Positions 14,608 through 21,304 of a stretch of 64,000 nt of DNA are shown piece by piece (position 1 is the stretch's first letter; each line of letters starts with the position of its first letter). The stretch is from Mesorhizobium loti. GTDB lineage: Bacteria; Pseudomonadota; Alphaproteobacteria; Rhizobiales; Rhizobiaceae. The notes below the pieces were generated by a model. That model saw only the letters and a list, made by a program, of their open reading frames with translations. It ran no database searches and was not told the origin of the DNA. Made by a program: the position numbers and the translations under genes. The DNA lies in assembly GCA_002356515.1 (NCBI GenBank), contig AP017605.1, forward strand, positions 2,232,001-2,296,000, read 5' to 3'.

Positions 14608-16077
14608 TTACCCAGGGTTGCTCATTCGCGAAAAATGGCTTTGCAGCACGGTGCGGAACTTTTGCATCGTCTTTTCGGTCGTCTGCGCATCGGCCGCCGC
14701 AAAGCCCATGACAAGGCCGTTTTGCTCCGTGCCATGGCGATACTGAATCGACAGCGCCGAGACGTTTATGCCGTGCTGAAGCGCCGCTTCGGCAACCGCC
14801 CGGTCGCTGCATCTGTCGCGGAAAATGCCGACGACCTGGATGCCGGATTCGGTGGTGTGGAAATCCAGCCATTCGCCGAGATGCCTTTGCGCGCTTTCCA
14901 GGAAGAACTGCCGCCTCTCCGCATAGAGCCGCCGCATGCGCCGGAGATGGCGGGTGAAATGCCCCTCATTCATAAAGTCCGCAAGCGCGGCCTGGGTCAG
15001 TAAGGGCGCGAACTGGCCGCTCACGCTCAACGCCGAGACGATCGTATGGTCGATCGCCTTGGGCGCCACCATAAAGCCGAGCCGCATCGCCGGGAAAAGG
15101 ATCTTGGCGAAGGTGCCGACATAGACCACGCGGTTTGACGCGCCGATGCCTTGCAGCGCCGGAATGGGCTGGCCCTGAAAACGGTATTCGCCGTCATAGT
15201 CGTCCTCGATGATCCACGAGCGCCAGCTTTCGGCCATGTGCAGGAGATTGAGCCGCTGTTCCATCGGCATGGTTATGCCGAGCGGGTGATGGCAGGAGGG
15301 CGTCACGAAGATCATGCGCGGAATGACAGCCGGCGGCTCGAGGTGCCAGCCCGCCTTGCTGACGCGCAGCGGTGCCAGCCTCGCCCCGGCCGAGACGAAG
15401 GCCGACCCGGCGCCATAATAGCCCGGCTCCTCCATCCACACCGTGTCGCCGTCATCGATCAGCAGTCGCGCCAGGAGATCGAACGCCGACTGCGCGCCAT
15501 TGGTAACGACGATCTGCTCGGCCGTGCACTTCACGCCGCGCGACGCGGTGAGGTAGCGCGCTATGGCCTCGCAAAGCGGCGGATAGCCGTTGACGTGATA
15601 AGTGCCGAAAAGATCGATATGCGCGAATTTGGCGCGGCGGCTGAGCAGTTTCGACCAGGTGTTGAACGGAAAATTGTCCGGGTCCGGCATGCCGGGATGA
15701 AAGGCGAGCATGCCCGGCCGGCCATGGTGATAGGGTTGGGCAAGCATGGTCTGCCCGCGCCGCGATATCGGATTGGCGTCCTCGACCGACACCTGTTCCG
15801 CCGCCACCGAACGGGTCGGCAGGTCCATGACCACCGAAGGCCTGCGCGGCCGTATCGCCAGATAGCCTTCCAGTGCCAGCTGGTCGCATGCGGCAATCAC
15901 CGTATTACGGCCGATATTCAGATCCCGCGCCATGACCCGTGTCGAGGGCAGTGCGTGGCCGCTCGGCAGCACACGCCGTTCGATCAGGCCGCGCAACTGG
16001 ACATAGAGCTGCCTGTGCAGATTGGCGGGGCTGTCGCGATCGAGCGCGATGCCGTCGACGGGAAAACTGGTCTTCAT
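14608..16077 (-). CDS. MocR-type transcriptional regulator (GntR wHTH fused to aminotransferase-like domain)
   Basis: This protein of about 489 residues has an N-terminal GntR winged helix (ANLHRQLYVQLRGLIERRVL, then LPSTRVMARDLNIGRNTVIA) and a fold-type I aminotransferase domain from about residue 120. The PLP-binding region shows TNGAQSAFDLLARLL, WIIEDDYDGEYRF and a Schiff-base lysine candidate in VYVGTFAKILFPAMRLGF. The family is named after MocR of the rhizopine locus. I chose ATG 16077 because AGGAA sits just before it; ATG 16095 is an alternative. It diverges from a MocA-like dehydrogenase with operator-like repeats between, so it probably controls the next five genes. Confidence 0.9.
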   Translation of the reverse strand: MKTSFPVDGIALDRDSPANLHRQLYVQLRGLIERRVLPSGHALPSTRVMARDLNIGRNTVIAACDQLALEGYLAIRPRRPSVVMDLPTRSVAAEQVSVEDANPISRRGQTMLAQPYHHGRPGMLAFHPGMPDPDNFPFNTWSKLLSRRAKFAHIDLFGTYHVNGYPPLCEAIARYLTASRGVKCTAEQIVVTNGAQSAFDLLARLLIDDGDTVWMEEPGYYGAGSAFVSAGARLAPLRVSKAGWHLEPPAVIPRMIFVTPSCHHPLGITMPMEQRLNLLHMAESWRSWIIEDDYDGEYRFQGQPIPALQGIGASNRVVYVGTFAKILFPAMRLGFMVAPKAIDHTIVSALSVSGQFAPLLTQAALADFMNEGHFTRHLRRMRRLYAERRQFFLESAQRHLGEWLDFHTTESGIQVVGIFRDRCSDRAVAEAALQHGINVSALSIQYRHGTEQNGLVMGFAAADAQTTEKTMQKFRTVLQSHFSRMSNPG

Positions 16078-16122
16078 CTGGTTCCTGAAAATCATTGGAA
16101 TCTGGTTCTAACAATGGAACCA
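16078..16122. promoter_or_regulatory. Candidate MocR operator
   Basis: CTGGTTC occurs twice in the same orientation (16078-16084 and 16102-16108), 24 bases apart. The second copy forms an inverted pair with GAACCA at 16117-16122 (TGGTTC-N8-GAACCA). The region lies between the divergent MocR-type gene and the dehydrogenase gene. MocR-family proteins often bind direct repeats spaced by about two helical turns, so this fits, but it is inferred from position and symmetry only. Confidence 0.45.
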
Positions 16123-16174
16123 AAGGCGGCCTAGGCTCAAGAAAAAAGCGTTCGGGTTCAGATGGGGCTGGCCG

Positions 16175-17293
16175 ATGCAGTGCATAAGGGTGGGAGTGAT
16201 CGGTGCCGGCGGCGTCGCCCAGGTCGAGCACATCCCGAATCTGCTCAAGCTGCACCGGCAGTTCAAGATTCTCGGCGTCTACGATCCGTCGCGAAAAGTC
16301 CGCGCCTTCGTCGGCGAGGAATTCGGCCTCGAGACATTTTCAGATCTCGACGCACTCCTTGCACTGCCGCTTGACGCCGTGGTCATCGCCTCACCGGACG
16401 CGCTGCACCGAGAACAGAGCCTCGCCGCCTTCGCCAGGGGGCTGCATGTCTTCTGCGAAAAGCCGCTTTGCTACAGCACGCAGGACATCGATGAATTGAT
16501 CGCCGCCAGGGATCGCGCCGGAAAGGTGCTCCAGGTCGGCTACATGAAGCGTTTCGACCCGAGCTACGAGGCGGCACTGAACATGCTGCCCGGCACGGCG
16601 CGGACGCTTCGCTGCGTTTCGGTCGAGGTCAACGATCCCGACGCCTGGCCCTTCATTCGGCACGCCTCCACTTGCCGGGGTGATGACGTCGCGGCGGAAT
16701 TGATTGCCTCGACCGAAGCCAGGCAGCGCGAGCAGGTGGAGCGTGCCGTGCCGGGGATGGACGATCCCGACACCTTTCGCGGCTTTGTCGGCGCCTATTC
16801 CTCGTCGATCGTGCACGACGTCAACGCCGTCCACGGCTTGCTCGATGCACTCGGTGTCGCCGATGGCGAGATCGTCGGCGCCTCGCTCTTCGCCAAGGGC
16901 GAAGGCGGCCAGGGCGCCGTGCTGCTCCTAGGCGGCCAGGCATTGTGGACCATGGTCCACATCGCCACTCCGGGGCTGCCCGATTATCGCGAGTGCATCA
17001 CGCTCCACTTCGACGACGCCTCGCTCGAACTGGAATTCCCCTCGCCTTATCTCAATCACCAGCCGACGCGGCTGACCATCCGCACCGGCGACGGCCACAC
17101 GCTTTCCAGCGGCGACATCCGCAGCGGCTACGAAGAGGCCTTCGTCGAGGAGTTGAGAGGGTTCTGGTCGGCGATCGTCGAAGGCTCAGCCGTGCGCAAC
17201 ACCGCCGAACATGCCCGCCGCGACATGACGCTGCTGGCCGGGCTGACCCGCCATCACCTTGCCCAATCGAAGCAATCAGGAGTTCGCCCGTGA
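16175..17293 (+). CDS. Gfo/Idh/MocA family NAD(P)-dependent oxidoreductase, MocA-like
   Basis: This 372-residue dehydrogenase has an N-terminal Rossmann fold (VGVIGAGGVAQVEHIPNLLK) and the family's EKP motif in HVFCEKPLCYSTQDID. The C-terminal alpha/beta domain follows from about residue 125. Such enzymes oxidise or reduce inositols, inosamines and sugars. It is the first gene of an operon with an IolE/MocC-like gene (GTGA overlap) and an ABC importer, divergent from the MocR-type regulator. By context it would oxidise an inositol or an inosamine-like compound, but sequence alone does not fix the substrate. Confidence 0.88.
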   Translation: MQCIRVGVIGAGGVAQVEHIPNLLKLHRQFKILGVYDPSRKVRAFVGEEFGLETFSDLDALLALPLDAVVIASPDALHREQSLAAFARGLHVFCEKPLCYSTQDIDELIAARDRAGKVLQVGYMKRFDPSYEAALNMLPGTARTLRCVSVEVNDPDAWPFIRHASTCRGDDVAAELIASTEARQREQVERAVPGMDDPDTFRGFVGAYSSSIVHDVNAVHGLLDALGVADGEIVGASLFAKGEGGQGAVLLLGGQALWTMVHIATPGLPDYRECITLHFDDASLELEFPSPYLNHQPTRLTIRTGDGHTLSSGDIRSGYEEAFVEELRGFWSAIVEGSAVRNTAEHARRDMTLLAGLTRHHLAQSKQSGVRP

Positions 17294-18192
17294 CGGTTGT
17301 TCGCATCGGCATCAATCCGATCACCTGGACCAATGATGACGTGCCGGAACTCGGCGGCGACACTCCGCTTGAAGTCTGCCTCAGCGAAACCAGACAGGCC
17401 GGTTATTCCGGCACCGAACTTGGCGGCAAGTTTCCGCGCCACTCGGCCGAGTTGAAGCGTATCATGGCACAGTATGGCCTTGCTGTGGTTTCCGGCTGGT
17501 ATGACGGCCGTTGCGACGAAAAGGACCTCAGTGCGGAGATGGATGCGATCACGCCGCATCTCCAGCTTTTGAAGGATATGGGCTCCACCCATGTCGTCTA
17601 TGCCGACACCTCGCGCGGGCGCCACAACGCCATCTGGGGGCCGATCTCGCAGCGTCCTGCGCTGAGCCCCGAGGAATGGCCGGCCTATGGCCGCAAGCTG
17701 ACGGCGCTGGCCGAACGGATGGCGGATTTCGGCGTGCGCATGGCCTTTCACCATCATATGGGCACCATCGTCGAAACCGACGCCGAGGTTGGCCTCCTGA
17801 TGCGGCACACCGGCGAAGCGGTCGGCCTGCTCTACGACACCGGCCATTCCATATTTTCGGGCGGCGATCCGCTGGCGCTGGTCAAGGCGCACGTCAAACG
17901 AGTCGTGCATGTGCATTGCAAGGACGCTCGCAAACCCGTGCTCGAGCGAGCCCGCGCCGAGGACATGAGTTTCATGGGCGCGGTCATGGAAGGGATCTTC
18001 ACCGTCCCCGGCGACGGCTTCATCGACTATCCCGCCATTTTGCGCGTGCTGGCCGACAATGGTTACAGCGGCTGGCTGGTCGTCGAGGCCGAGCAGGATC
18101 CCAGCAAGGCCAATCCGCTGACCTATGCGACAATGGGATTCCAGAACCTGTCGCGCATGGCACGGCAAGCCGGATTTGACGTCATCGAGTGA
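17290..18192 (+). CDS. IolE/MocC-like TIM-barrel protein (inosose dehydratase family)
   Basis: The product of 300 residues starts at GTG 17290, overlapping the preceding stop by four bases. The N-terminus GINPITWTNDDVPELGGDTP is close to 2-keto-myo-inositol dehydratase (IolE). Metal-binding positions of the xylose-isomerase-like barrel are visible in VRMAFHHHMGTIVETDAEV, LLYDTGHSIFSGGDPL, VVHVHCKDAR and WLVVEAEQDPS. IolE removes water from an inosose; MocC of the rhizopine locus is a homologue of uncertain reaction. The other iol genes (iolB, iolC, iolD) are not in this window, which leans towards a moc-like role. The in-frame reading upstream of 17290 is a shadow of the dehydrogenase gene. 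Confidence 0.86.
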   Translation: MTVVRIGINPITWTNDDVPELGGDTPLEVCLSETRQAGYSGTELGGKFPRHSAELKRIMAQYGLAVVSGWYDGRCDEKDLSAEMDAITPHLQLLKDMGSTHVVYADTSRGRHNAIWGPISQRPALSPEEWPAYGRKLTALAERMADFGVRMAFHHHMGTIVETDAEVGLLMRHTGEAVGLLYDTGHSIFSGGDPLALVKAHVKRVVHVHCKDARKPVLERARAEDMSFMGAVMEGIFTVPGDGFIDYPAILRVLADNGYSGWLVVEAEQDPSKANPLTYATMGFQNLSRMARQAGFDVIE

Positions 18193-18305
18193 TCGAGGCC
18201 GCCATGCGGCCTCTGGGGAACCAGTGCTGAGGAATGAAACTGGAATGAAGGGGCAACTGGACTGCCGACCGTAATTGCGGCGGCGGAAAACAAACAGGAG
18301 GTTCT

Positions 18306-19262
18306 ATGTTTTCGCTTGCGAAATTAGTAAAGCCTGCGCTCGGCCTGCTGGCCGGCTTCACGATGATGGCGGCGGCCACGACCCTTGCGGCCGCCGACGA
18401 AACGCGGGTGGTGTTCGTCACCCATGGCCAGAGCGGCGACCCCTACTGGTCGGTGGTCAAGAACGGCATGGACGATGCCGCCAAGACGCTGGGCGTCAAG
18501 GCCGAATATCTGGCGCCCGAAACCTTCGACATGGCCAAGATGGCACAGATGATCGACGCCATCACGGCCTCGAAACCGGACGGCATGGTCATTTCGATCC
18601 CCGATGCGGCCGCGCTTTCAACGCCGGTCAAGAACGCCGTCGCCGCCGGCATCCCGGTCATCATCATCGATTCAGGCGGCTCGAAACTCACGCACGATCT
18701 TGGCGGCCTGCTGTTCATGGGGCAGGATGAATTCCAGGCGGGCGTCATGGCCGGCGAGCGCATCAAGGCGCTCGGCCTCACCAAGGCGGTCTGCGCCAAC
18801 CACGAGGTCGGCAATTCGAGCCTCGACGACCGCTGCGCCGGCTTTGCCAAGGGGCTGGGAGTCGACGTTCCGGTGATGAACGGCGTCATCGACCCGACCG
18901 AAATGAAGAACCGCGTGATCGCCTACATGACCGCTCATGCCGATACACAGTTCATTCTCGCCGTCGGCGCCAGCGGTGCCGAACCGACGCTGGCCGCGCT
19001 TGATGAATTGGGCCTCTCCGGCAAGGTGAAGACCGGCACGTTCGATCTCTCCCCCACGATCCTGCAGGCCGTCGTCGCTGGCAAGATGGAATGGGGCATC
19101 GACGCCCAGCAATATGCCATGGGCTACATCCCGGTCGCGATGTTCGACCTTTGGAAGAAGTACAAGATCATGCCGATCGCCGACTATCCGACCGGCCCCG
19201 GCTTCGTCACCAAGGACACCGCCGCCTCGGTCATCGAGCTGTCGAAACTCGGCAAGCGCTAG
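18306..19262 (+). CDS. Sugar/inositol ABC transporter substrate-binding protein, MocB-like
   Basis: This 318-residue periplasmic binding protein belongs to the ribose/inositol (type 1, peripla_BP_4) class. The signal peptide runs from MFSLAKLVKPALGLLAGFTM to the likely cut near LAAADE. The mature domain starts TRVVFVTHGQSGDPYWSVVK and contains PDGMVISIPDAAALSTPVKN. A strong AGGAGG ribosome binding site at 18296-18301 supports the ATG. It precedes permease and ATPase genes, although a palindromic repeat lies between it and the permease. MocB of the rhizopine locus is the same class of protein; the ligand here is inferred to be an inositol derivative. Confidence 0.88.
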   Translation: MFSLAKLVKPALGLLAGFTMMAAATTLAAADETRVVFVTHGQSGDPYWSVVKNGMDDAAKTLGVKAEYLAPETFDMAKMAQMIDAITASKPDGMVISIPDAAALSTPVKNAVAAGIPVIIIDSGGSKLTHDLGGLLFMGQDEFQAGVMAGERIKALGLTKAVCANHEVGNSSLDDRCAGFAKGLGVDVPVMNGVIDPTEMKNRVIAYMTAHADTQFILAVGASGAEPTLAALDELGLSGKVKTGTFDLSPTILQAVVAGKMEWGIDAQQYAMGYIPVAMFDLWKKYKIMPIADYPTGPGFVTKDTAASVIELSKLGKR

Positions 19263-19298
19263 CACTGGCGGCCGGGGCCCCGCTCCGGCCGCTTCATC

Positions 19299-19396
19299 AG
19301 AGCAATTCCAGGAAAAGTGTGAGCGGTTTTCCGTCCGGAATTGCGTCAAGACAAGGAGATAGAGCTGTTCAGCGTGAAACGATGAACGGCTCTATG
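19299..19396. repeat. Rhizobial-type palindromic intergenic repeat, copy 1
   Basis: Two inverted pairs lie in tandem: GCAATTCC paired with GGAATTGC, and AGAGC(T)GTTC paired with GAAC(G)GCTCT. The same element recurs at 37942-38042 with nearly identical sequence. It lies inside an operon, between the binding-protein and permease genes, where a stable hairpin could make transcript levels of the two genes differ. No gene fits in this gap. Confidence 0.75.
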
Positions 19397-19412
19397 TGAA
19401 GGGCAAGCAGCC

Positions 19413-20510
19413 ATGGTTTCAGAGATTCGCGACGAGCGGGTCCGGTCCGTCTCACGCCTCAGCCGCCTGTTGAGCAGGCCGGAGCTTGGCGCGGCGGCCG
19501 GCACGGTGCTGGTCTTCGTGTTCTTCGCCATAACGGCGGGAAGCTCGGGACTGTTCAGTGCCAAGGGCATCGTCAACTTCCTCGAAGTCTCGGCCCAGCT
19601 CGGCATTCTCGCCGCCCCCGTGGCTCTGCTGATGATCGCCGGCGAGTTCGACCTCTCGGTCGGCTCGATGATCGGCTTTGCCGGCATCCTGATCGCCATC
19701 CCCGCCGTGTTCTGGGGCTGGCCGATCTGGCTGTCGCTGCTGCTCACCTTCGCCGTCTGCGGTGGCATCGGCGCGCTGAACGGCCTCGCCGTCGTCAGGA
19801 CTGGCCTGCCCTCCTTCATCGTCACGCTCGGCAGCCTGTTCATGCTGCGCGGCCTCACCCTTGGCCTCACGCGCGGCATTTCAGGGCGGACCCAGGTGTC
19901 GGGCGTGCACGAGCTGGCGTTGCACGATCCGCTCAACAGCCTGTTTTCGGGACAGGTGTTTTCCGGCCTGATCGCCGGGCTTGCCGATATCGGCCTGATC
20001 GGCAAGCGGGCCGACGGCCTGCCGTCGATCTCAGGCATCCCGGTGTCGATCGTCTGGTGGATCGTGCTGACACTGGCCTGCACCTGGCTCTTGACGCGCA
20101 GCCGCTTCGGCAACTGGATTTTTGCCGCCGGCGGCGAAGCCAATGCCGCGCGCAATCTCGGCGTGCCGGTGGCGCGCACCAAGATCACGCTGTTCGTCAT
20201 GACGGCGCTCGCGGCAGCCCTGTTCGCGGCGATCCAGGTGCTGGTCACCGGCTCCGCCGACACGCTTCGCGGCACGCAGAAGGAATTTGAGGCCATCATC
20301 GCCGTCGTCATCGGCGGCACGCTGCTCACCGGCGGCTACGGATCGGCCGTCGGCGCCATGTTCGGCGCCCTGATCTTCGGCGTGGTGCAGATGGGCATCT
20401 TCTACACCGGCATCGACACCGACTGGTTCAAGCTGTTCATGGGCGCCATGATGGTCATCGCGGTGCTGTTCAACAGCTATGTGCGCAACCGCGCCATGAG
20501 GAGCCGGTGA
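19413..20510 (+). CDS. Sugar/inositol ABC transporter permease (RbsC type)
   Basis: This 365-residue permease of the BPD_transp_2 class has roughly eight to ten membrane helices. Typical RbsC-family segments are [40 protein letters not shown] and [20 protein letters not shown], the last near the ATPase-docking region. It follows the binding-protein gene after a palindromic repeat and overlaps the ATPase gene by one base. Two RbsC-type subunits usually form the channel, so one permease gene is enough. Confidence 0.92.
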
Positions 20511-21304
20511 TGGCCGAGCCCTATGTCGAACTGAAGTCGGTCAGCAAATATTTTGGCTCGGTCGTCGCGCTGAAGGACGTGTCCTTCGACGTCTGTCCCG
20601 GCGAGGTGCATTGCCTGCTCGGCGACAATGGCGCCGGCAAGTCGACGCTGATCAAGACGCTGTCGGGCGTCTACACGCCCGACGAGGGTGAAATCCGCGT
20701 CCAGGGGAAGGCGACACGGTTTGCCTCGCCCGCCGATACGCGCGACAGCGGCATCGCGACCGTCTACCAGGACCTGGCGCTGGTGCCGCTGATGAGCGTG
20801 GCGCGCAACTTCTTCCTCGGGCGCGAGCCGATGCGCAAATTCGGGCCGATCAGCCAGTTCGACGCCGAGTTCGCCAACCGCACCGCCTATGACGAGATGT
20901 CGGCGATGGGCATCCAGCTGCGCGACCCCGAACAGCCGGTCGGCACGCTGTCGGGCGGCGAACGGCAATGCCTGGCCATCGCGCGTGCCGTCTATTTCGG
21001 CGCCAAGGTGCTGATCCTCGACGAGCCGACATCGGCGCTGGGCGTCCACCAGGCCTCCGTGGTCCTGAAGCTCATCGTCCAGTCCAAGGCGCGCGGCATC
21101 GGCGTCATCTTCATTTCCCACAACGTTCATCACGCCTATGTCGTCGGCGACCGCTTCACCCTATTGAAGCGCGGCCGGAGCACCGGCACCTACGCCAAGG
21201 GCGAAATCACCCGCGACCAGCTGCTCAATTTGATGGCCGGCGGCAAGGAACTGGTGGATCTGGAACAGGAACTGGCGAAGTCGCCGAGGAATGGGCCGGC
21301 CTGA
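20510..21304 (+). CDS. Sugar ABC transporter ATP-binding protein (single-domain, RbsA/FrcA-like)
   Basis: This ATPase of about 264 residues has Walker [11 protein letters not shown]-loop [10 protein letters not shown], signature [14 protein letters not shown], Walker [13 protein letters not shown] and switch His in [12 protein letters not shown]. It has one nucleotide-binding domain, as in FrcA-type importers, whereas RbsA carries two. The ATG at 20510 overlaps the permease stop (TGATG), giving coupled translation; a GTG one codon earlier is also in frame. It ends the moc-like operon that begins at 16175. Confidence 0.92.

What the first reader, a model, noticed from the sequence alone, without database searches (positions are those of the whole stretch)
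14608..21304. A moc-like (rhizopine catabolism-type) locus: MocR, MocA-like, MocC/IolE-like, MocB-like plus ABC permease and ATPase
Seen: a MocR-type regulator diverges from a Gfo/Idh/MocA dehydrogenase, an IolE/MocC-like protein and a ribose/inositol-class binding protein with permease and ATPase. Known: the S. meliloti L5-30 mocABRC genes encode exactly a dehydrogenase, periplasmic binding protein, GntR/aminotransferase regulator and IolE-like protein. iolB, iolC and iolD are absent nearby, which argues against an ordinary inositol operon. Inference: uptake and breakdown of an inosamine or other inositol derivative.
Basis: partly seen in the sequence, partly recalled or inferred. Interest (0 to 1): 0.7.

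Follow-up and report, generated by a model that had tools for sequence, protein, structure and literature searches.

The report
MocR/MocC inosamine-type locus, Mesorhizobium variant
A chromosomal gene set, probably from a Mesorhizobium, looks built to sense, import and break down an amino-inositol compound; its core is shared with the rhizopine genes of nodule bacteria, but its transporter and first enzyme are different.

Summary
The regulator passes NCBI's rhizopine MocR model (754 bits, cut-off 650). The 'IolE-like' protein lies in the MocC clade with Sinorhizobium and Rhizobium leguminosarum MocC (70%), apart from this genome's own IolE (40%). A tandem operator of the published moc-box form lies at 16075-16109. 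The dehydrogenase is not MocA (separate clade) and the binding protein is not MocB (about 25%). iolBCD and mocDEF are absent from the window but encoded elsewhere in the genome. Of 80 MocR neighbourhoods, 68 hold MocC, 16 a DegT/StrS-type aminotransferase, 9 both; 5 plasmid loci hold neither although their MocR passes the model, so MocR and operator alone do not name the substrate; MocC is the specific mark. 85 of 146 genomes of the genus carry a MocC-clade protein. Best reading: uptake and breakdown of a non-methylated inosamine feeding the iol pathway; a variant of the moc system, not a member of the S. meliloti type. The substrate is untested.

The parts
14608..16095 (-). mocR-family regulator (GntR helix-turn-helix + aminotransferase-like domain), 495 aa as an ORF; the start may be Met7 (16077), by comparison with the called starts of related loci
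   Evidence: NCBIfam NF052281 rhizopine_MocR 754.4 bits, cut-off 650; Pfam GntR and Aminotran_1_2; start geometry
16075..16109 (+). tandem moc-box operator: CATCTGGTTCC, 13-base spacer, AATCTGGTTCT; box 1 overlaps the Met7 start codon of mocR
   Evidence: Motif form from PMC10107442; best site of the 64-kb window with a matrix from 20 distinct sites of loci whose first divergent gene is not the dehydrogenase: 25.9, against 8.0 for a register overlapping it and 7.0 for the next separate site; only 0-mismatch match of the derived pattern in the 8.45-Mb genome
16175..17293 (+). Gfo/Idh/MocA-fold dehydrogenase of a separate subfamily (called DHw here), 372 aa
   Evidence: PF01408; no NCBIfam equivalog reached (best TIGR04380, 103.7 bits, cut-off 355); own clade 100/100 apart from MocA, IolG and others; AlphaFold2 pLDDT 91.8
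17290..18192 (+). MocC (IolE-family TIM-barrel dehydratase), 300 aa, GTG start
   Evidence: TIGR04379 381.7 bits, cut-off 290; in the MocC clade, SH-aLRT 99; 70% to S. meliloti KH35c MocC against 40% to the genome's own IolE
18195..18213 (+). perfect 8-base inverted repeat after mocC, no T run
   Evidence: sequence and fold; role is inference
18306..19262 (+). periplasmic binding protein, CUT2 sugar/inositol class, 318 aa; not MocB
19268..19292 (+). hairpin with an 8-base stem just after the binding-protein gene
   Evidence: sequence and fold; role is inference
19413..20510 (+). ABC permease, BPD_transp_2 / CUT2 class, 365 aa
   Evidence: PF02653
20507..21304 (+). ABC ATPase with a single ATP-binding domain, 265 aa, overlapping the permease by 4 bases
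   Evidence: PF00005

Best explanation
The locus is a MocR-controlled unit for importing and breaking down an aminocyclitol of the inosamine type, most likely non-methylated scyllo-inosamine or a close relative. Proposed working: the binding protein, permease and ATPase import it; MocR, whose sensor domain resembles a PLP aminotransferase, binds the amine and acts at the tandem moc-box to switch on the divergent operon; the dehydrogenase oxidises the ring to a keto-aminocyclitol (or oxidises the C-N bond to scyllo-inosose); MocC, an inosose-dehydratase homologue, removes water (or ammonia); the product enters the genome's separate iol pathway (IolD, IolB, IolC). Shown here: gene identities, clades, operator-like site, gene linkage, presence of the iol genes. 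Inferred: substrate, effector, and both chemical steps. It works like the rhizopine moc system but is not the S. meliloti type.
For: MocR above the curated cut-off. MocC clade: the 73 IolE-family proteins found beside MocR (tblastn bits of at least 200) plus 2 survey rows that are also beside MocR form one clade, SH-aLRT 99; 15 other IolE-model rows, the genome's own IolE among them, lie outside. Positions fixed in at least 95% of 73 MocC rows and different in IolE: D71 (Ser in 15 of 15 IolE rows), D105 (Glu in 15 of 15), F152 (Tyr in 15 of 15). Operator-like site. Linkage: 80 MocR neighbourhoods: MocC in 68, DegT/StrS-type aminotransferase in 16, both in 9, neither in 5; the 39-row MocR subclade that holds the window's (support 100) has only MocC- or aminotransferase-linked rows. 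The aminotransferase's PDB relatives include glutamine--scyllo-inositol and 2-deoxy-scyllo-inosose aminotransferases, though the best match is an octulosonate transaminase. A carbohydrate-deacetylase-like (ChbG) gene is in 24 of the 74 neighbourhoods; its model score is below the cut-off (131 of 400). iolB, iolE, iolD, iolC and iolG are in the genome; iol genes are reported as required for rhizopine use in R. leguminosarum (IolD, IolA; passage of PMC5789663) and S. meliloti (passage of PMC6637203). iolA was not looked for. Two of the 15 listed best plasmid matches of the binding protein were opened: 51% in a Thermus iol operon and 50% in a Rhizobium iolG locus.
Against: No assay; no ligand. 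The dehydrogenase and binding protein are not orthologs of MocA and MocB. Five plasmid loci whose MocR passes the rhizopine model (688-702 bits; L012, L177-L180) hold neither MocC nor the DegT-type aminotransferase, and a moc-box-like pair (15-16 of 22) lies near the start of their mocR too, so neither the model nor the box form is specific for inosamines. The proven S. meliloti and R. leguminosarum type of MocR groups with aminotransferase-linked loci, not with the window's subclade. No aminotransferase or deaminase gene is in the window's unit, so the fate of the nitrogen is unexplained. The transporter's opened plasmid relatives are inositol loci, so a non-amino inositol is possible. D174 of the SBP, which might fit an amine, aligns with Glu in 4ru1 and so argues for nothing. 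Confidence was lowered from 0.65 to 0.6 when the five loci were found.
Confidence: 0.6

Rival explanations
1. The unit takes up and breaks down an inositol isomer or derivative without an amino group (for instance a chiro-, scyllo- or O-methyl-inositol); MocR has been co-opted to sense it or an amine that co-occurs with it.
For: The binding protein's two opened plasmid matches are in a Thermus iol operon and a Rhizobium iolG locus. MocC is homologous to inosose dehydratase. No deaminating gene lies in the unit.
Against: MocC is a clade apart from IolE, and the three MocC-clade matches of the unbiased IolE survey (the window and two others) all stood beside MocR; 16 of 80 MocR neighbourhoods carry a DegT/StrS-type aminotransferase; the genome already has iolE and iolG; PMC6668481 reports that its mocR-based biosensor lit up on roots making scyllo-inosamine and not on roots making scyllo-inosose alone (passage).
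Confidence: 0.22
2. The unit is part of a full rhizopine system in which 3-O-methyl-scyllo-inosamine is first demethylated by the MocDEF homologues encoded elsewhere in the genome.
For: MocD (78%), MocE (78%) and MocF (62%) homologues lie beside the iol cluster; a second MocD (69%) and MocE (78%) pair with a PanB-like gene lies at C1:1.475 Mb.
Against: The derived operator pattern matches without mismatch only in this window; none of the six 1-mismatch places, and none of the listed 2-mismatch places, is near the mocDEF homologues at 4.604 Mb (the list runs by position to 5.14 Mb). In PMC3538637 (passages) mocDEF clusters of rhizobia, that of the M. loti MAFF303099 chromosome included, adjoin a FixV-like LacI regulator. 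MocD is in 5 of 80 MocR neighbourhoods.
Confidence: 0.1
3. The unit uses an unrelated amine or sugar and the moc resemblance is only by family.
For: Gfo/Idh dehydrogenases and CUT2 transporters serve many sugars; the dehydrogenase model matches many sugar dehydrogenases with nearly tied Z (30.8-33.5 in the 50 rows shown); MocR-model loci without MocC have quite different neighbours.
Against: The combination of MocR subclade, MocC clade and operator, and no MocC in those loci.
Confidence: 0.08

Closest known systems
Rhizopine catabolism (moc) genes of Sinorhizobium meliloti L5-30 and Rhizobium leguminosarum; compared through S. meliloti KH35c pSymA (L010), R. lentis p4 (L011), R. leguminosarum Vaf-46 (L096) and Phyllobacterium zundukense (L176)
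   Same: MocR model, MocC clade, tandem moc-box at the mocR end of the divergent operon
   Different: Different dehydrogenase and binding protein; own permease and ATPase in the unit (the published sensor used MocB with inositol-transporter parts from R. leguminosarum; PMC10107442); no MocD, MocE, MocF, ChbG-like, PanB-like or PurU-like match in the window
Loci with MocR, MocC, ChbG-like, SBP-permease-ATPase and IolG-like genes (Roseateles sp. XES5 plasmid, L009; several Mesorhizobium)
   Same: MocR 56%, MocC 71%, permease 64%, ATPase 61%, SBP 47%
   Different: IolG-type dehydrogenase and a deacetylase-like gene instead of DHw
Ordinary myo-inositol iol operon (this genome, C1:4.585-4.600 Mb)
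   Same: IolE-family dehydratase and Gfo/Idh dehydrogenase; a sugar-type ABC transporter stands next to it
   Different: No iolB, iolC or iolD in the window; MocC clade, not IolE; dehydrogenase far below the IolG cut-off

Membership tests
S. meliloti-type rhizopine (moc) system | MocR of the rhizopine model | tested here: met
   NF052281 754.4 bits, cut-off 650; but a different subclade from S. meliloti MocR, and the model also passes regulators of five loci without MocC
S. meliloti-type rhizopine (moc) system | MocC (IolE-like protein in the MocC clade) | tested here: met
   Tree, SH-aLRT 99; 70% to S. meliloti KH35c MocC
S. meliloti-type rhizopine (moc) system | MocA ortholog | tested here: not met
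   MocA clade and DHw clade separate, each 100/100; only 30% over 133 residues
S. meliloti-type rhizopine (moc) system | MocB ortholog | tested here: not met
   24.7% over 154 residues; MocB has no NF052284 match at E <= 1e-30, the window's SBP passes it
S. meliloti-type rhizopine (moc) system | MocDEF demethylase genes in the locus | tested here: not met
   No MocD, MocE or MocF match in the window; homologues elsewhere in the genome
S. meliloti-type rhizopine (moc) system | Tandem moc-box between mocR and the divergent operon | tested here: met
   16075-16109; binding itself untested, and similar pairs lie near mocR of loci without MocC
S. meliloti-type rhizopine (moc) system | Induction by, or growth on, scyllo-inosamine or 3-O-MSI | not testable with these tools
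   needs bench work
Ordinary myo-inositol (iol) operon | iolB, iolC, iolD in the unit | tested here: not met
   No match of the genome's own IolB, IolC, IolD in the window
Ordinary myo-inositol (iol) operon | Dehydratase inside the IolE clade | tested here: not met
   Tree; TIGR04379 (IolE) itself scores both kinds above its cut-off
Ordinary myo-inositol (iol) operon | IolG dehydrogenase | tested here: not met
   TIGR04380 103.7 bits, cut-off 355; tree
CUT2-class ABC sugar importer | Binding protein PF13407, permease PF02653, ATPase PF00005 | tested here: met
Gfo/Idh/MocA dehydrogenases | Rossmann domain with the EKP lysine and full-length fold | tested here: met

The most novel reading that the evidence does not exclude
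Inosamine catabolism is a common trait of soil Alphaproteobacteria rather than a private currency of rhizopine-making rhizobia, and the window's variant gets rid of the nitrogen without an aminotransferase: DHw (catalytic Asp of IolG replaced by an invariant Ser) oxidises a ring hydroxyl to a beta-amino ketone, and MocC works as an ammonia lyase on it, giving the same dione that IolD cleaves. MocC's Asp at position 71, Ser in all 15 IolE rows compared, would hold the ammonium.
Probability: 0.16. Interest if true: 0.7.

Novelty: new variant of a known kind. Interest (0 to 1): 0.5.

Why it matters
Rhizopines are described as rare in nature and are being used as an exclusive plant-to-bacterium signal (PMC6668481, PMC10107442; passages and introduction). 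If the MocR/MocC core marks inosamine use, then many native soil bacteria could eat or sense the signal: 85 of 146 genomes of this genus carry a MocC-clade protein. It also makes the unsettled chemistry of the first steps testable, since dehydrogenases of three separate clades (DHw, IolG-like, MocA) and sometimes an aminotransferase stand beside the same MocC, and it supplies a single complete importer for building sensors.

Tried and rejected

The gene caller missed mocC and was redone; it still misses genes (for instance mocR in L016), so the counts use tblastn. Scoring L012 and opening five more plasmid matches added one locus with MocC (L176) and five with neither (L012, L177, L178, L179, L180): 80 in all, 68 with MocC, 16 with the aminotransferase, 9 both, 5 neither. 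Only 9 of the 40 listed plasmid rows were opened. L180 has 4.7 kb on one side.

19 of the 93 loci have under 3 kb on one side of mocR and are not among its 74. The 74 are 62 (which kept the best 80 of 426 places), 8 from the order survey, 3 plasmid loci and the window; not all 74 MocRs were scored with the model. The aminotransferase queries came from these same loci, and the matrix training sites were chosen by their score to the published motif; all of this leans towards the reading. 10 of 32 training loci had no pair scoring 15 or more, and 13 of 56 other regions had none.

Literature: seen as passages only: PMC6668481, PMC5320631, PMC5789663, PMC2597717, PMC6637203; abstract and passages: PMC3538637; abstract, passages, introduction and host-range section: PMC10107442. 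Rossbach 1994 and Bahar 1998 were not read. I found no paper describing this variant in the search listings; most subscription papers are not held.
Full report
WHAT IS THERE. The window lies at C1:2232001-2296000 of an 8.45-Mb genome in 4 contigs. The nearest named relatives of its MocR are Mesorhizobium strains at 89-97% identity, so the host is very probably a Mesorhizobium. Six genes form a compact unit: mocR (14608-16095, minus) diverges from a dehydrogenase (16175-17293), an IolE/MocC-type gene (17290-18192) and a binding protein, permease and ATPase (18306-21304), all plus. Hairpins follow mocC and the binding-protein gene, a common way (recalled) to set different amounts of protein from one transcript. 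Upstream lies a BTAD-domain gene and downstream a PHB-depolymerase-type esterase gene; in the gene orders they accompany the unit only in some of the closest Mesorhizobium loci.

REGULATOR AND OPERATOR. MocR scores 754.4 bits with NCBIfam's rhizopine_MocR model, cut-off 650. PMC10107442 proposes a tandem 11-base moc-box (AAAGYGGYTCT twice, 13 bases apart) in S. meliloti, Rhizobium pisi and Phyllobacterium promoters (passages). In 43 of 56 other MocR-divergent regions I found a pair scoring at least 15 of 22. A matrix built from 20 distinct sites of loci whose first divergent gene is not the dehydrogenase put its best site of the whole 64 kb at 16075-16109, score 25.9; a register overlapping it scored 8.0 and the next separate site 7.0. 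A pattern drawn from it matches the 8.45-Mb genome without mismatch only here and with one mismatch at six places; with up to 2 mismatches it matches less often than its reversed control. The first box overlaps the Met7 start codon of mocR; in S. meliloti and R. leguminosarum the box sits at the same place relative to the called mocR start, so Met7 may be the true start. Against a too-narrow reading: five plasmid loci whose MocR passes the same model (688-702 bits) also have a pair scoring 15-16 near the start of mocR although they lack MocC. Regulator family and box form are thus wider than inosamine use; annotated class IV or aspartate-family aminotransferase genes stand near three of the five, which fits a family that senses amines.

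MocC. The IolE-family protein is 70% identical to the MocC of S. meliloti KH35c and 40% to the genome's own IolE. In a tree of 90 rows the 73 IolE-family proteins found beside MocR fall in one clade with S. meliloti and R. leguminosarum MocC (SH-aLRT 99); the two survey rows that join them are the MocC genes of two loci that are also MocR-linked; the genome's own IolE and 14 other survey rows lie outside (a quick tree, several long branches). Clade-specific positions include D71 (Ser in 15 of 15 IolE rows), D105 (Glu in 15 of 15) and F152 (Tyr in 15 of 15), while HHHM, DxGH, HxHxK and EAEQDP motifs are shared. NCBI's IolE model does not tell the two apart.

DEHYDROGENASE. It is a Gfo/Idh/MocA-fold protein with no equivalog. 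In a careful tree it forms its own clade (100/100), apart from MocA (100/100), IolG and three other types from moc-type loci. Against IolG it keeps the EKP lysine and the histidine, but the residue aligned with IolG's catalytic Asp is Ser, invariant in 26 rows (S210, H214; the roles of these residues are recalled from Bacillus IolG). It also carries an insert of some 30-40 residues. The model (pLDDT 91.8) matches many members of the superfamily almost equally well.

TRANSPORTER. The binding protein passes NCBIfam NF052284 'rhizopine SBP' (435.9, cut-off 420), but S. meliloti KH35c MocB does not match that model at E <= 1e-30, while SBPs of a Thermus iol operon and a Rhizobium iolG locus reach 382 and 370, below the cut-off. 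So the model's name is better read as 'SBP of this kind of MocR-linked locus'. The class is inositol-like; amine specificity is not shown.

SISTER LOCI. I compared 93 MocR loci after removing duplicates; 74 have at least 3 kb on both sides. With L012 and five more opened plasmid loci there are 80: 68 hold MocC, 16 a DegT/DnrJ/EryC1/StrS-type aminotransferase (identified), 9 both and 5 neither (L012, L177, L178, L179, L180). On the MocR tree the 39-row subclade with the window's MocR (100) holds only MocC- or aminotransferase-linked rows. DHw is in 41 of the 93 loci, 39 with MocC; the other 2 (L043, L106) are cut off by contig ends. MocD is in 5 of the 80: L010, L011, L096, L176 (canonical moc type) and L050 (Frigidibacter, which has DHw). 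In the less biased order survey, 13 of 297 genomes have MocR over the cut-off, in 15 loci; 11 have MocC nearby, 3 have the aminotransferase instead, and 1 is cut off by a contig end. In the genus, 85 of 146 genomes carry a MocC-clade protein (66-100% identity to the window's; the next matches are at 46% and below), 25 of them at 90% or more (I counted the rows of the listing; whether MocR stands beside each was not tested). Named carriers of MocC outside Mesorhizobium, Rhizobium and Sinorhizobium include Aestuariivirga, Taklimakanibacter, Tabrizicola, Frigidibacter, Microvirga, Lichenifustis, Kaistia and Acidisoma.

REST OF THE GENOME. iolB, iolE, iolD, a fused iolC and iolG lie at C1:4.585-4.600 Mb, followed by a binding protein 65% identical to S. 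meliloti MocB and homologues of MocD (78%), MocE (78%) and MocF (62%). A second pair of MocD (69%) and MocE (78%) homologues lies with a PanB-like gene and a sugar transporter at C1:1.475 Mb. So genes for demethylation and for the inositol pathway exist, but away from MocR's only exact operator match. PMC3538637 reports that the M. loti MAFF303099 chromosome and plasmids of several rhizobia have a FixV-like LacI regulator beside mocDEF (passages).

INTERPRETATION. MocC, its company with MocR, the occurrence of an aminotransferase of the aminocyclitol/amino-sugar class in sister loci, and the inositol-type importer together point to an inosamine-type substrate that feeds the iol pathway. Lack of MocDEF in the unit points to a non-methylated form. 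Against: no ligand is known; the proven type of MocR is in another subclade that groups with aminotransferase-linked loci; five MocR-model loci lack MocC; and nothing in the unit plainly removes nitrogen. The chemistry offered in the section on the most novel reading is a hypothesis.

VERDICT. A new variant of the moc kind; ordinary in its protein folds, of real interest for how widespread MocC is and for rhizopine-based signalling. The NCBIfam names show that curators already know MocR-linked loci; in the searches listed under Tried and rejected I found no paper on this variant.

Noticed in passing
L160 (own genome C1:4600512-4606962): MocB-like binding protein (65%), MocD (78%), MocE (78%) and MocF (62%) homologues sit beside the iol cluster, apart from MocR; a second MocD/MocE pair with a PanB-like gene and a CUT2-type transporter is at C1:1473630-1479962 (L161). 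Probably O-methyl-inositol use.
   Followed up: partly
L012, L177, L178, L179, L180: Plasmid-borne MocR-family regulators that pass the rhizopine MocR model but have no MocC beside them. L012, L177, L178 and L180 sit among other annotated genes (ABC transporters, aminotransferases, acetamidases, in differing mixes); L179 is not annotated. Moc-box-like pairs lie near their mocR: unexplained, perhaps other amine-sensing systems.
   Followed up: partly
L022, L024, L025, L045, L046, L056, L097, L098, L099, L100, L102-L109: MocR neighbours a DegT/StrS-type aminotransferase, with or without MocC; the proven type of rhizopine MocR groups with some of these on the tree. R. lentis (L011) also has an annotated DegT-type gene at 21204, cut by the end of the stretch and not counted.
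   Followed up: partly
L010:6684-7565, L009:9987-10874 and other moc-type loci: A carbohydrate-deacetylase-like (ChbG) gene recurs in moc-type loci, the canonical ones included, hinting at N-acetylated substrates; the window lacks it.
   Followed up: partly
L010:14392-15222 and 15264-16148; L011; L176: Canonical moc loci also carry PanB-like and PurU-like genes after mocDEF, as expected if demethylation releases a one-carbon unit.
   Followed up: no
L058 and many Mesorhizobium loci: A third variant: MocR, MocC, a CUT1-type transporter, an IolG-like dehydrogenase and an unnamed protein (cluster 8).
   Followed up: partly
L050: Frigidibacter locus combining the window-type unit with ChbG, MocD and MocE homologues: a possible one-piece system for a methylated inosamine.
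   Followed up: no
NCBIfam NF052284 and NF052281: The model named 'rhizopine catabolism SBP' does not match S. meliloti MocB (no hit at E <= 1e-30) but matches MocR-linked SBPs of another family, and the 'rhizopine MocR' model also passes regulators of loci without moc genes; both names may mislead annotators.
   Followed up: yes
window 19299-19345: Imperfect palindrome between the binding-protein and permease genes that resembles a dispersed rhizobial repeat (recalled, not tested).
   Followed up: no
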